Source: Puniceicoccaceae bacterium
GTDB taxonomy: Bacteria; Verrucomicrobiota; Verrucomicrobiia; Opitutales; Coraliomargaritaceae
Assembly (NCBI GenBank): GCA_002729725.1
Contig: PBYS01000060.1
Location: 1 to 64,000, forward strand
Direction: 5' to 3'
DNA length: 64,000 nt
The position numbers and the translations under genes are program-made. The notes under the pieces were generated by a model that saw only the letters and a list, made by a program, of their open reading frames with translations, did no database searches and had not been told where the DNA came from. This document shows, piece by piece, positions 29,767 through 37,082 of the stretch. Numbering within the stretch: the first letter of the stretch is position 1; each line of letters begins with the position of its first letter.

Positions 29767-30444
29767 TTAAGACTCTGAGATTGTGATCGATTCACCGAGT
29801 TCGGTTAAAGAATTGAAGGCGGCCTCCGCGCCGGCTGCTCGTAGCTCTGCGACAGAGTGCGCACCAGTGGCCACACAGTAGCACGTGAGGCCCGCGTTTT
29901 GAGCTACAGCGACATCGGTGGGAGAGTCGCCGATCATAATGGCGCCCTCGGACTTGGCCGAGATCTGCTCTAGCACGTGCTGAGTCAGCTCTTGTTGCGG
30001 CTTTTGCCACTGTGTATCCACACTGCCCACGCAGACGGGGATGTATTTCGCAAAGCCCGCATAGCGACTGACTTTGCGCGCCGTATCGCCGTGCTTATTA
30101 GTGAAGAGGGCTTGTGGGATGCGTGCTTGGTAGGCGCGTTCGATCAAGTCCATGCCCCCGGGTAAAATAATCAAGCCATCAAACATAATTTGCGGGAAGC
30201 GTGCGCGAAAGGCTTTGCCAGCTTCCTCCAAACGATCGGAGGCTACGAAGAGGCTCATCGTCTCGGCCATCGTGCCGCCCAAGCTGCGGCGAATGGCATC
30301 ATCGCTAGGAGCGGGATAGCCCATGTTGGTAATGACCTCGCCATAGCAACGAATGATCGCAGCCGTTTGATCAATCAGTGTGCCGTCCATATCCCAAAGT
30401 ATGGCCGACGGGCAAGGGAGCGGTGTGGATGCGTTGTCTTCCAT
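29767..30444 (-). CDS. HAD-family phosphatase (phosphoglycolate phosphatase-like), copy 2
   Basis: A 225-residue HAD hydrolase. Motif I is LWDMDGTLID (nucleophile and acid Asp), motif II the Thr in ALFTNKHGDT, motif III the Lys in WQKPQQE, motif IV AIMIGDSPTDV. The C1 cap domain gives the Gph-like class. Its start overlaps the stop of the next HAD gene (ATGA at 30441-30444), and the two proteins resemble each other, so this is a tandem duplication. Substrate unknown; phosphoglycolate or a sugar phosphate would be typical. Confidence 0.85.
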   Translation of the reverse strand: MEDNASTPLPCPSAILWDMDGTLIDQTAAIIRCYGEVITNMGYPAPSDDAIRRSLGGTMAETMSLFVASDRLEEAGKAFRARFPQIMFDGLIILPGGMDLIERAYQARIPQALFTNKHGDTARKVSRYAGFAKYIPVCVGSVDTQWQKPQQELTQHVLEQISAKSEGAIMIGDSPTDVAVAQNAGLTCYCVATGAHSVAELRAAGAEAAFNSLTELGESITISES

Positions 30445-31112
30445 TATGCTGTGCAGGCTTCAGGCTCCAGTCCGAAGACCTTTTGGCCGAGCTCGTACAG
30501 GTCTTTATGCACATGTTCGGAGACAATGTATTCGGAGAGTTGTTCGGCGCTATGGCTGCCCGTGGCGACCAAATGGCATGTCAGGCAGCCGGCCTCGGCG
30601 GCGGCGAGGTCGTAGGGAGAGTCGCCGACCATGATGGCTTCTTCGGAGGCGCAGTCCATTTGCTCCAGTGCGTAAGCGGTGAAGAGCGGATCAGGCTTGC
30701 GGTAGGGGCACTCTGGCTCACCGGTGCCGATAATGACGTCCAGCCACTGGTCGAGGCCGAGATGTGCTAGCACATCGCGCGTGTCGCCGGCATATTTATT
30801 GGTAAAGACGCCCAACTTGTCGCCGCGTGCCTTGAGGGCCTGCAAGAGCCATTCTGCGCCGGGTAGGGTAAAGACGTCGTCGAAAATAATTTCTGCGAAG
30901 TGTTTGCGAAATAAAGGCTCCGCAGCGGGCACATTGGCCTCGCCGCATAGTTTCGTGAGCGTGATCGGCACGGAGCCACCCACGGTCGCTCGCACGGTAG
31001 CGTAGTCACTCTCCGGTAGACCAAGCTCGCGCTGGGCGTAGGCCACGCTCTTATGAATCGTGGTAAAGTGGTCGATCAAAGTGCCGTCCAGGTCAAATAG
31101 GATGTATTGCAT
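30444..31112 (-). CDS. HAD-family phosphatase (phosphoglycolate phosphatase-like), copy 1
   Basis: A 222-residue HAD hydrolase with motif I FDLDGTLIDHF, the Thr of motif II in GVFTNKYAGDT, the Lys of motif III in YRKPDPL and motif IV IMVGDSPYDLAAAE. It is translationally coupled to its paralogue through a shared ATGA. It diverges from the mlaE gene, so the stretch 31113-31198 should hold promoters for both directions. Confidence 0.85.
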   Translation of the reverse strand: MQYILFDLDGTLIDHFTTIHKSVAYAQRELGLPESDYATVRATVGGSVPITLTKLCGEANVPAAEPLFRKHFAEIIFDDVFTLPGAEWLLQALKARGDKLGVFTNKYAGDTRDVLAHLGLDQWLDVIIGTGEPECPYRKPDPLFTAYALEQMDCASEEAIMVGDSPYDLAAAEAGCLTCHLVATGSHSAEQLSEYIVSEHVHKDLYELGQKVFGLEPEACTA

Positions 31113-34763: not shown

Positions 34764-36010
34764 ATGACAGATCGTAGCAATCTTTGGAAGGCCCTAGGCC
34801 CCGGTATACTCGTCGCCTGTGCCGCAGTTGGCGGCTCGCACTTGGTCTGGTCGACCCGCGCAGGGGCGGAATTTGGTTGGTCATTGCTGTGGCTTGTGCT
34901 CTTGGCCAACGCATTGAAGTTTCCCTTTTTTTTGTATGGGCAACGCTATACGGCCGCCACCGGCGAGAGCCTGCTGGCGGGCTATAAACGACTCGGGATC
35001 GGCTATGTTTGGATCTTTCTCGCGGTCAATATCTTGACCGGCACTACAACATCGCGGGCGTGAGCATGCTCAGCGGTGCCTTGCTCACCGGCTACGGCAT
35101 CACAGGTATCTCGGTGCCCTTTATTACTGTAGGGGTGCTCTTCATCTGTGCCGCGCTATTGCTGGTGGGGCATTACAAATTGCTCGATTCCTTGGCGAAG
35201 GTCATTATCGCGCTGCTCGGCATCAGCACCCTAGTGGCGGTTGCCCTGGCGATTCCCAACCGCCCCGAGCTGGCGGCTGATTTTGTGGCTCCCAGCCCAT
35301 ATCAGTGGGCCTCGTTTGCCTTTTTGATTAGCCTGCTAGGCTGGATGCCTGCGCCGATTGATTTGTCTGCCTGGTCTTCACTTTGGATGTTTAGTCGCGA
35401 GAAGCAGACCGGCCACTTTGCCACGGTCAAAGAGTCCGCGATCGACTTCTATGTGGGCTATTTCTCTGCCGTCGGTTTGGCCATTTTATTTATTTCGCTG
35501 GGCGCGCTGGTGATGTTTGGCAGTTCCGAGAGCTTTGCGGCGGGCGGTGTAGGTTTTTCGCAGCAACTCGTGAGTCTGTATACCGACACGATCGGTGATT
35601 GGTCGCACCTTTTGATTTTGTCGGCTGCTTTCATTACTATGTTCAGCACCACCTTGACTTGCTTGGATGGCTATCCGCGCTCATTGGCGGCTTGCTGCGC
35701 GCTGATTAAAGACCTGCCTGCGGAGGCCTTTATGCGCATTCAAAAAGTTTGGATTTTGATTTCTGCGCTCTTGGCCAGTGTGGTGGTGCTTTGCTTTGTG
35801 CAAAATTTACTACAACTGCTCAGCTTCGCCGCCATCGTCTCCTTTATCACGTCGCCAGCCTTGGCCTATATCAACTATAGGGTGATGAATGGAGCCAATG
35901 TGCCCGAGGCTTACCGTCCAGGACCGGCGCTTAAAGCACTCAGCTGGGCGGGCCTGCTGTTCTTTACCGTGATGACTTCTGGCTATCTTTACGTGACCTT
36001 TGTTCGTTAG
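34764..36010 (+). pseudogene. Nramp-like metal transporter with one frameshift
   Basis: Two frames (34764-35063 and 35009-36010) join into one protein of about 415 residues with 11 or so membrane segments. The first part ends TGTTTSRA after a shift near 35046-35050, where the sense would continue IAGVSMLSGALL. One lost base would explain it. The first membrane segment has AAVGGSHLVWSTRAGAEFG, where canonical Nramp has D-P-G-N, and the sixth has GWMPAPIDLSAWSS in place of M-P-H. This variant group also occurs in Bacteroidota and may use other ions. A sequencing error cannot be excluded. The stop overlaps the next gene's stop on the other strand. Confidence 0.75.
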
Positions 36011-36660
36011 AAAGAGGGCGGGGCGTGAGGATAGAGTTTGAGCGCAGCAGCGATGATGGGCTTCGCCCATTCTGGCGCTGCCGAGAGCTCGCGGGGCCCC
36101 ACGATTACGCCTGCACGTAAATCGAGAATGAGCTTTGGCATGGGGCACTGTCCTGCAGCTGGATCTGCGTGCCTTGAATTATCGAACAGGCGTAGGCTAT
36201 CGATATGTGGCATCAAACGAATCAGATTGCGCCGGCTGCCGTTCCAGCGCTGACGGATTGCTGCTTCTGGTATGTCGTGTCCGTGTTGGCGGACCCGTTG
36301 TTGAACACGGGCAATGTTCAACTCGACCGATTCGAGTCCCGCATACCAGACTTTGAGCTTGAGCCCTTGAGCGGCCGCCTCGATCAAGCGTTCCGTTATC
36401 GTTTGACCTCCCAGTGTGGTTTCAAATGCGAAGGTGCGCCTCGCTAGAGCCGCGGCTTCGAGCATTTCCTTGCCTAAGCTCCACGCATGCCCATTGGCGA
36501 TGCTCTGCGTCATGTTGGGGTGGAGCGCTTTGAGCTTTTTAGCGGCTAGGTCGGGGTTGTAATAAACGTTGCCCTTTGACTCAATCATCGCGCCGCCGAT
36601 GCTACTTTTTCCCGACCCATTGACCCCAGCGAGCACGTAAATCGTGGCTGCCGCTGCCAT
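36007..36660 (-). CDS. Zeta-toxin-like P-loop kinase, probable toxin
   Basis: The 217 residues show the layout of the zeta-toxin/UNAG-kinase-like family: Walker A LAGVNGSGKSS (K18), then YNPDLAAKKL, FAFETTLGGQT, a middle AGLESVELNIARVQQRVRQ, and a lid with AIRQRWNGSRRNLIRL that could supply Arg to the phosphate. Zeta kinases phosphorylate UDP-N-acetyl sugars or other substrates and poison cells. Directly upstream (2 nt apart) is a Phd/YefM-type antitoxin gene. The substrate here is unknown, and a harmless small-molecule kinase is possible. Confidence 0.78.
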   Translation of the reverse strand: MAAAATIYVLAGVNGSGKSSIGGAMIESKGNVYYNPDLAAKKLKALHPNMTQSIANGHAWSLGKEMLEAAALARRTFAFETTLGGQTITERLIEAAAQGLKLKVWYAGLESVELNIARVQQRVRQHGHDIPEAAIRQRWNGSRRNLIRLMPHIDSLRLFDNSRHADPAAGQCPMPKLILDLRAGVIVGPRELSAAPEWAKPIIAAALKLYPHAPPSF

Positions 36661-36662
36661 GC

Positions 36663-37013
36663 TTAATCCGCCTGATGGGCCTTCGCGGCATCGCCGAGTG
36701 CAGCGGGGGATGCACTGAAGGCATCTTCATACGCAGCGGCACTTGCATCCGATTGCATGTCGGCAAAACACGTTTCGTAGTCTTGCCGTAGCAGCTCCAA
36801 CGGGTCCTTACTGGCCAATTCGTTGATGATTTGGTCGTAGAGATCCGCAGGCAGTAGGATCGCTTCGCGCTTGCGATTGCGAGTGATGCTGACAGGGCCT
36901 GACTGCGACATCTTTTGAAAAACGCTCTTAAACGCGTTCTTCAGTTCCGACGATGGAGACGCGGGCAGATCCTTGGATGGATGCAGGGCATGGATGTCAT
37001 ATACCGTGGACAT
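36663..37013 (-). CDS. Phd/YefM-family antitoxin
   Basis: The 116-residue protein has a Phd/YefM-like core: SSELKNAFKSVFQKMSQSG, then PVSITRNRKREAILLPADLY, which is the R-x-x-x-A-V/I-L-x-x-x-x-Y pattern of this DNA-binding antitoxin fold. The C-terminal tail is acidic and probably wraps the toxin. It precedes the zeta-like kinase gene by 2 nt on the same strand. The inverted repeat at 37014-37039 lies immediately upstream, so it probably represses its own promoter. Confidence 0.8.
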   Translation of the reverse strand: MSTVYDIHALHPSKDLPASPSSELKNAFKSVFQKMSQSGPVSITRNRKREAILLPADLYDQIINELASKDPLELLRQDYETCFADMQSDASAAAYEDAFSASPAALGDAAKAHQAD

Positions 37014-37039
37014 ATGGCAAATGTTGCCATATTTGCCAT
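37014..37039. promoter_or_regulatory. Operator-like inverted repeat of the toxin-antitoxin operon
   Basis: ATGGCAAAT (37014-37022) and ATTTGCCAT (37031-37039) are perfect inverted arms with an 8-nt spacer. A third partial TTGCCA lies in the spacer, so TGGCAA/TTGCCA form an overlapping second palindrome. It touches the antitoxin start codon, the usual place for a Phd-type operator. Confidence 0.72.
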
Positions 37040-37082
37040 TTAGTCAAACTTTATCCAATTCAGGGTCCACAGCTCAGTGCTC

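What the first reader, a model, noticed from the sequence alone, without database searches (positions are those of the whole stretch)
36007..37039. Phd-type antitoxin paired with a zeta-toxin-like kinase
Classic zeta toxins pair with epsilon (helical bundle) antitoxins or PezA. Here a Phd/YefM-type DNA-binding antitoxin precedes a zeta-like kinase by 2 nt, with a clean inverted repeat operator at the antitoxin start. It could be a mix-and-match module with its own way of neutralising the kinase.
Basis: partly seen in the sequence, partly recalled or inferred. Interest (0 to 1): 0.6.

Follow-up and report, generated by a model that had tools for sequence, protein, structure and literature searches.

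The report
Phd antitoxin guarding a zeta-like kinase
A two-gene unit found in many distantly related bacteria appears to pair a presumed growth-stopping kinase with a protein that both silences it and switches the genes off, a partner combination that we did not find described.

Summary
On the minus strand a Phd/YefM-type antitoxin gene (36663-37013) precedes a zeta-like kinase gene (36007-36660) by 2 nt. The pairing is not chance: all 96 loci whose kinase scored at least 150 bits (87 distinct kinases, window included) have the Phd-like gene directly upstream. Searched alone in 702 genomes of three groups, the antitoxin's last 50 residues gave 40 hits; 38 lie beside this kinase or its remains, 2 weak ones do not. 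Paired kinases form one branch, in nine phyla by record label. In the window's genus the pair sits between hflX and an Nramp gene, which are adjacent without it in 7 congeners. The 'inverted repeat' is part of a tandem 9-bp array (WWWTRGCYA) conserved across phyla; described YefM operators have TGTACA cores 12 bp apart (PMC7730913). Best reading: a type II toxin-antitoxin family with a Phd DNA-binding head and a kinase-specific inhibitory tail. Toxicity, neutralisation, DNA binding and substrate are inferred. It is distinct from epsilon/zeta, PezAT and mycobacterial RHH-zeta pairs: a new variant of a known kind.

The parts
36663..37013 (-). Phd/YefM-type antitoxin gene, 116 aa
   Evidence: PF02604 31.8 bits; profile hits solved YefM and Phd
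36816..36956 (-). Phd DNA-binding head (residues 20-66)
   Evidence: Pfam match range
36666..36815 (-). C-terminal tail (residues 67-116), three predicted helices at 71-86, 89-100, 103-115; presumed kinase inhibitor
   Evidence: model; found only beside this kinase clade or its remains, 38 of 40 hits, the 2 others weak
36007..36660 (-). Zeta-like P-loop kinase gene, 217 aa; presumed toxin
   Evidence: PF06414 30.9 bits; fold nearest to zeta, AvrRxo1 and PezT chains in Foldseek
36601..36627 (-). P-loop GVNGSGKSS (residues 12-20)
   Evidence: conserved in paired and unpaired kinases
36550..36552 (-). Asp37, presumed catalytic (zeta Asp67 role)
   Evidence: 78 of 78 paired and 19 of 19 unpaired; equivalence to Asp67 inferred from position
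36043..36165 (-). Clade-specific C-terminal extension of the kinase (residues 166-206; P173, W198, A206)
   Evidence: P173, W198, A206 in 78 of 78 paired kinases, mostly gaps in the 19 unpaired
37015..37050 (-). Operator array: units AAATGGCAA (37041-37033), ATATGGCAA (37032-37024), CATTTGCCA (37023-37015) and a fourth core TTGACT (37047-37042) in 9-bp register
   Evidence: unit model and scan
37012..37039 (.). Two overlapping perfect inverted repeats (37012-37032 and 37014-37039), part of the array and touching the start codon
37083..38381 (-). hflX, upstream neighbour (flank, not part of the module)
   Evidence: NCBIfam GTP_HflX 413.7 bits
35009..36010 (+). Convergent Nramp-type gene, C-terminal part (flank, not part of the module); its stop overlaps the kinase stop
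   Evidence: weak Pfam Nramp match, below cut-off; conserved neighbour in congeners

Best explanation
This is a type II toxin-antitoxin module. Shown by comparison: a Phd/YefM-type protein and a zeta-like P-loop kinase are encoded as a constant antitoxin-then-kinase pair, inserted as a unit, behind a conserved 9-bp tandem array. Inferred: the Phd head binds the 9-bp array, probably with the kinase as corepressor, and shuts off its own promoter; the C-terminal three-helix tail binds and inhibits the kinase; when antitoxin is lost, the kinase phosphorylates a small metabolite by zeta-type chemistry (P-loop Lys18, Asp37, Glu80, conserved Arg) and stops growth. A UDP-amino sugar or a dinucleotide is the best guess for the substrate, at low confidence.
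For: Constant pairing, 96 of 96 rows, 87 distinct kinases; tail tied to the kinase, 38 of 40 hits in 702 genomes; one paired clade, SH-aLRT 99; insertion between hflX and Nramp, pair absent from the 9 other hflX loci of the genus; zeta-like fold, Foldseek E 1.5e-6, and conserved P-loop, Asp37, Glu80, Arg118, Arg122, Arg138; Phd/YefM head by Pfam and by profile to solved YefM/Phd; cross-phylum 9-bp operator, 38 of 44 and 30 of 31 in cross-validation; decayed loci mostly lose the kinase (small numbers).
Against: No experiment here. One interior locus (L088) has a full kinase and a broken antitoxin frame, and the excess of broken kinases (3 to 1) is too small to prove toxicity. The fold matches polynucleotide kinase as well as zeta, so the substrate is open. 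No consensus promoter was found at the array. The model of the antitoxin has no confident Foldseek match. Kinase distances correlate with the head (0.84) as much as with the tail (0.81), so co-evolution does not single out the tail.
Confidence: 0.78

Rival explanations
1. A regulated metabolic kinase, not a toxin: the Phd-like protein is only the dedicated repressor of a small-molecule kinase that is useful under some condition.
For: Many zeta-like relatives in the same class have no Phd-like gene upstream, so the fold as such need not be toxic; the genes sit among housekeeping genes; one full kinase with a broken antitoxin frame exists (L088).
Against: The Phd head plus a tail found only with this kinase is the anatomy of an antitoxin rather than of a plain repressor; patchy presence and clean insertion in the genus; related zeta-like kinases with other antitoxins are toxic when expressed (PMC6362051, PMC5728571).
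Confidence: 0.15
2. An anti-phage abortive-infection module: same biochemistry, but the natural trigger is phage attack.
For: Many toxin-antitoxin pairs act in phage defence (PMC10440598, abstract and passages); horizontal spread.
Against: It does not contradict the best explanation, only its purpose.
Confidence: 0.25
3. It is simply the known mycobacterial RHH-zeta (PezAT-like) kind with a misread antitoxin.
For: Both kinds occur in the same genomes: 5 of 10 mycobacterial genomes holding the Phd pair also hold a ParD_like antitoxin followed by a zeta-like kinase.
Against: In those 5 loci the kinase matches the Phd-type kinase profile at 67-72 bits (25-28% identity to the window kinase), against 264-371 bits for full-length Phd-paired kinases, and the RHH antitoxin scores 1.0 bit or less with the tail profile.
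Confidence: 0.04

Closest known systems
epsilon/zeta (pSM19035) and PezAT
   Same: Zeta-type kinase fold (1gvn_B Z 13.0 over 177 residues, rmsd 3.6), P-loop and Asp in register
   Different: Antitoxin is Phd/YefM-type, not a helical bundle (epsilon) or HTH-headed (PezA); kinase shorter, 13% identical over the aligned part
RHH (ParD_like)-zeta pairs of mycobacteria (Rv0367c-Rv0366c; MHSD3)
   Same: Antitoxin-then-kinase order, DNA-binding head plus tail, zeta-like kinase; those were shown toxic and rescued (PMC6362051 abstract and passages; PMC5728571 results and discussion)
   Different: RHH head, no detectable tail similarity, kinase of another branch (25-28% identity); both kinds coexist in 5 of 10 genomes
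YefM-YoeB and Phd-Doc
   Same: Homologous DNA-binding head
   Different: Toxin is a zeta-like kinase, not a RelE-type RNase or Doc; operator cores repeat every 9 bp, not TGTACA at 12 bp (PMC7730913 passages)
AvrRxo1-Arc1
   Same: Kinase fold among the nearest solved groups
   Different: A secreted plant-pathogen effector with its own small partner (PMC4938570, abstract start in the listing; rest recalled); no sign of secretion was looked for here

Membership tests
Type II toxin-antitoxin module | Two adjacent genes kept together across lineages | tested here: met
   96 of 96 rows, 87 distinct kinases; 38 of 40 tail hits
Type II toxin-antitoxin module | Toxin stops growth and antitoxin protein neutralises it by binding | not testable with these tools
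   needs expression; only inferred
Type II toxin-antitoxin module | Autoregulation through an operator at the antitoxin start | tested here: inconclusive
   conserved array present; binding not tested; no consensus promoter found
Phd/YefM antitoxin family (PF02604) | Match over the curated cut-off | tested here: met
   window 31.8 vs 29.8 bits; 67 of 67 relatives match at E 0.01
YefM-type operator | TGTACA cores 12 bp centre to centre | tested here: not met
   lag 12 not raised (z -1.9), lag 9 raised (z 24.7); definition from PMC7730913 passages
Zeta toxin family (PF06414) | Match over the curated cut-off | tested here: met
   window 30.9 vs 22.3 bits; 66 of 66 relatives match at E 0.01
Zeta toxin family (PF06414) | P-loop and catalytic Asp | tested here: met
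   GxNGxGKS and Asp37 conserved; the equivalence to zeta Asp67 is inferred from position
Zeta toxin family (PF06414) | Phosphorylates UDP-N-acetyl sugars | not testable with these tools
   fold does not discriminate; substrate unknown
epsilon/zeta or PezAT system | Epsilon or PezA-type antitoxin | tested here: not met
   antitoxin is PF02604; tail profile has no PDB relative at E below 0.5
RHH (ParD_like)-zeta pair | ParD_like (PF11903) antitoxin | tested here: not met
   none of the 67 antitoxins matched PF11903 at E 0.01; direct comparison of 5 such loci
Known anti-phage system (PADLOC) | Match to a PADLOC family | tested here: not met
   no match at E 0.01 or better for either protein

The most novel reading that the evidence does not exclude
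A separate, cross-phylum toxin-antitoxin family: a Phd/YefM head permanently joined to an undescribed tail of about 50 residues that specifically inhibits one clade of zeta-like kinases with its own C-terminal extension (and perhaps its own substrate), under a 9-bp tandem operator geometry not described for Phd/YefM antitoxins in the papers seen here.
Probability: 0.6. Interest if true: 0.6.

Novelty: new variant of a known kind. Interest (0 to 1): 0.46.

Why it matters
If right, it adds a third kind of DNA-binding antitoxin (after HTH-headed PezA and RHH-headed ones) to the zeta-kinase toxins, with an inhibitory tail that can be tested by itself. It offers a large, well-bounded family, from Verrucomicrobiota to environmental mycobacteria and Nitrospira, in which to ask how inhibitory tails and DNA-binding heads are exchanged and whether the kinase substrate changes with them. 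The 9-bp array makes a direct prediction about repression.

Tried and rejected
A defence-system label: PADLOC gave nothing at E 0.01 or better. A phage home: IMG/VR gave no relative with the window kinase; with the profile it gave 11 relatives of 28-37% identity, whose partners I did not check; the phage collection gave 2 rows of 24% and 28% identity. A plasmid home: 394 plasmid records matched the kinase; 30 were listed, the best at 53% identity. I opened 6 of these 30: three have the Phd-type partner (two Variovorax plasmids and Acidiphilium pACRY02), three have unrelated small upstream ORFs. A mycobacterial antitoxin gave no plasmid match at 1e-5, although the Variovorax plasmids hold divergent ones.

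A link of the antitoxin tail to solved structures: best E 0.51; Foldseek of the antitoxin model had no row at E 0.001 or better, its best rows being YefM/RelJ-type antitoxins at E 0.26-0.29. VIA-align on the kinase does not separate zeta from polynucleotide kinase. A sigma-70-like promoter at the array: none found. Other genomic copies of the operator: besides the window site, 10 rows with 3 mismatches, against 1 for the backwards control pattern; I did not follow these 10 up. Decay asymmetry as proof of toxicity: 3 against 1, too few. Mirror-tree correlation does not single out the tail (Mantel 0.84 head, 0.81 tail) and was not used as proof. A partner downstream of the unpaired kinases was not looked for; only upstream was.

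Print: searches for a Phd-zeta pair listed no paper whose title or abstract start describes it; searches returned none, searches listed 20 of 50, 15 of 39 and 12 of 16. Opened for passages: PMC2701414 (PHD toxins given as Fic/Doc, PIN, RelE and a MazF-like family), PMC6504116 (zeta with ParD_like or HTH_3 in the 12 of 16 places shown), PMC10440598 (no occurrence of zeta; 12 of 19 places shown), PMC7354431, PMC6362051, PMC7730913, PMC5923241; PMC5728571 abstract, first part of the results and the discussion. Subscription papers, preprints and supplements were not searchable, so a table entry elsewhere is possible.

Full report
WHAT IS THERE. On the minus strand an antitoxin-like ORF (36663-37013, 116 aa) is followed after 2 nt by a kinase ORF (36007-36660, 217 aa). 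Pfam gives PhdYeFM_antitox (31.8 bits, cut-off 29.8; residues 20-66) and Zeta_toxin (30.9 bits, cut-off 22.3; residues 6-149). NCBIfam gives no family over its cut-off for either. The kinase has no second match at E 0.001 in its 4.7-Mb genome. The flanks are hflX on the same strand and the end of a convergent Nramp-type gene.

IS THE PAIR MORE THAN CHANCE. The kinase was searched in 286 genomes of the window's class, in the named species genomes with a profile of 13 kinases (397 relatives, best 80 kept) and in 56 nearer genomes. Of the 118 loci held then, 96 had a kinase match of at least 150 bits to the window kinase (45-69% identity besides the window itself). The other 22 were dropped before the count: 21 scored lower, one of them a broken copy of this clade (L020), and one had no hit. 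All 96 have an ORF of the same Phd-like family directly upstream; they hold 87 distinct kinase sequences, the window's among them twice (L001, L112), and the gap is -20 to 157 nt. In three (L088, L089, L108) the antitoxin ORF is short; L089 and L108 lie at contig ends. The 80 loci were the best of 397, so weaker relatives there were not seen.

The reverse test used only the antitoxin's C-terminal part, about 50 residues (alignment A4), in three groups: the window's class (15 hits in 286 genomes), the order of a betaproteobacterial genome (11 in 300) and the class of a Nitrospira genome (14 in 116). On inspection 38 of these 40 lie beside this kinase or its remains; the two others are the weakest hits of their sets (E 0.00997 and 9e-4), in open frames of 1338 and 640 aa without a kinase. 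Four of the 38 (G000, G331, G332, G339) were known beforehand. In the class the 14 tail-bearing genomes are the same 14 that hold the kinase or its broken copy. In 37 of the 38 the Phd head stands in the same frame; the exception, L174, is a remnant, and in L140 (the same place as L020) the head is decayed.

ONE CLADE, MANY PHYLA, HORIZONTAL. A tree of 78 paired and 19 unpaired kinases separates them by one change with SH-aLRT 99, against 17.6 changes for shuffled labels. The unpaired rows are lower-identity relatives from the class and nearer genomes plus two plasmid ones; L020, L028, L114, L117, L118 and L180 were left out as broken, unmatched, partial or near-copies. The tool warns of long branches between the two sides. 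By record title the paired kinases come from Verrucomicrobiota, Actinomycetota (Mycobacteriaceae), Nitrospirota, Pseudomonadota, Acidobacteriota, Planctomycetota, Ca. Rokuibacteriota, Myxococcota and Thermodesulfobacteriota; many are MAGs whose labels may be wrong. The border lies near 40% identity: Acidiphilium at 42% has the Phd partner, Roseibium at 40% has an unrelated 55-aa ORF instead. In the window's genus, hflX was found in 10 of 14 genomes, its own included. None of the 9 other hflX loci holds the pair. In 7 of them the Nramp gene is the next gene, the two stops -47 to 87 nt apart as computed; in L125 no Nramp match lies in the flank and L128 ends at a contig end. The pair is thus an insertion of about 1 kb between two convergent genes.

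THE KINASE. The AlphaFold model is confident (pLDDT 93.5, pTM 0.89). The first ten Foldseek rows are zeta, AvrRxo1 and PezT chains, best E 1.5e-6. VIA-align gives zeta 1gvn_B Z 13.0 (177 residues, rmsd 3.6) and bacterial polynucleotide kinase 4mde_A Z 13.1 (155 residues, rmsd 3.6), which is a tie, so the fold does not name the substrate. Conserved in paired and unpaired kinases are, among others, G12, N14, G15, G17, K18, N35, D37, E80, T82, R118, R122, G127, H128, R138 and D160. D37 should match Asp67 of S. pyogenes zeta, called catalytically important in passages of PMC5923241; the equivalence is inferred from position. Specific to the paired clade are P36, W60, G84, G108 and a C-terminal extension at about 166-206 with P173, W198 and A206 in 78 of 78.

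THE ANTITOXIN. Its profile hits solved YefM (2a6q, E 4.9e-5) and Phd (3hry, E 2.5e-4), mainly over the head. The model is fair (pLDDT 84.4, pTM 0.53); the tail is three helices. Conserved tail residues are L72, L75, M86-Q87, F99, A101, P103, L106-G107 and A110. The tail has no PDB relative by profile at E below 0.5. Of ten mycobacterial genomes that hold the Phd pair, five also hold a ParD_like (RHH) antitoxin followed by another zeta-like kinase, the kind already shown to be toxic and rescued (PMC6362051, abstract and passages; PMC5728571, results and discussion). Those kinases are 25-28% identical to the window kinase and their antitoxins score 1.0 bit or less with the tail profile. Two kinase branches with two different antitoxins thus live side by side.

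THE OPERATOR. The wider pattern is a tandem array. Over 75 non-redundant promoter regions, base identity at lag 9 is 0.352 against 0.253 in shuffles (z 24.7), with lag 18 at z 18.4 and lag 27 at z 7.5; the next highest is lag 8 at z 5.5. Against other windows of the same loci, which repeat at multiples of three because they are mostly coding, lag 9 has z 8.9, lag 18 z 5.1 and lag 27 only z 0.9. Strict half-sites are spaced 9 nt apart 34 times, 18 six times, 27 five times and 36 twice; 24 of 75 loci have two of them 8-11 nt apart, against a mean of 0.2 (largest 3) in 200 shuffles. A unit model settles on rotations of AAAATGGCC from four random starts, and a retrained control set has less than half its information. 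Trained on Verrucomicrobiota it passes the 99% control level in 38 of 44 other loci; trained on the others, in 30 of 31 Verrucomicrobiota loci. In the full fit 71 of 75 pass (trained on the same set); L049, L055, L097 and L113 do not. In the window the units are AAATGGCAA, ATATGGCAA and CATTTGCCA, with TTGACT in register before them, covering 37015-37050 and ending one base before the start codon. Elsewhere in the genome the pattern has only matches with 3 mismatches, 10 of them against 1 for the control pattern. YefM and Axe operators have two TGTACA cores 12 bp apart (PMC7730913, passages), so the geometry here differs, although single units in some loci (for example L077, L099) contain TGTACA. 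No consensus promoter was found in the window.

DECAY. Of 110 distinct loci (the false hit L143 left out), 102 have both genes complete, 3 have a broken or deleted kinase beside a complete antitoxin (L038, L172, L175), 2 have both damaged (L020, L174) and 3 have a complete kinase with an incomplete antitoxin frame, two of these at contig ends. The direction fits a toxin; the numbers are too small to prove it.

VERDICT. This is a real, conserved, horizontally moving Phd-zeta-like pair. I read it as a type II toxin-antitoxin family in which the Phd head represses through a 9-bp array and the tail inhibits the kinase. The pairing, the insertion and the array are shown; toxicity, neutralisation, DNA binding and substrate are inferred. 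The openly licensed papers searched gave no description of this pair among those listed or opened. The single genes are annotated in public records, in one case with the Phd/YefM gene next to a 'hypothetical protein'.

Noticed in passing
window 34764-36010 (+): The Nramp-type gene is split over two reading frames near 35040-35063 in the window; in 6 of 6 congener loci checked the two parts lie in one frame. Sequencing error or a real frameshift; not followed further.
   Followed up: partly
L020 (same place as L140), L172, L174, L175: Decayed copies of the pair: kinase in pieces or reduced to its last 33-48 residues beside a whole or partial antitoxin.
   Followed up: partly
L179 and L180, 1309-2121: Alphaproteobacterial plasmids carry a 40%-identical kinase behind a 55-aa ORF unrelated to the Phd antitoxin: possibly yet another partner type.
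   Followed up: no
L014-L030 except L020: Distant zeta-like kinases of the class have no Phd-like gene upstream; whether they have a partner elsewhere or are solitary was not tested.
   Followed up: no
G000, rows other than the window site: Ten sites with 3 mismatches to the operator pattern, against 1 for the backwards control; not examined.
   Followed up: no
window 29767-31112 (-): Two adjacent, similar-looking HAD-type phosphatase ORFs (225 and 222 aa), possibly a tandem duplication (ORF list; family name recalled).
   Followed up: no
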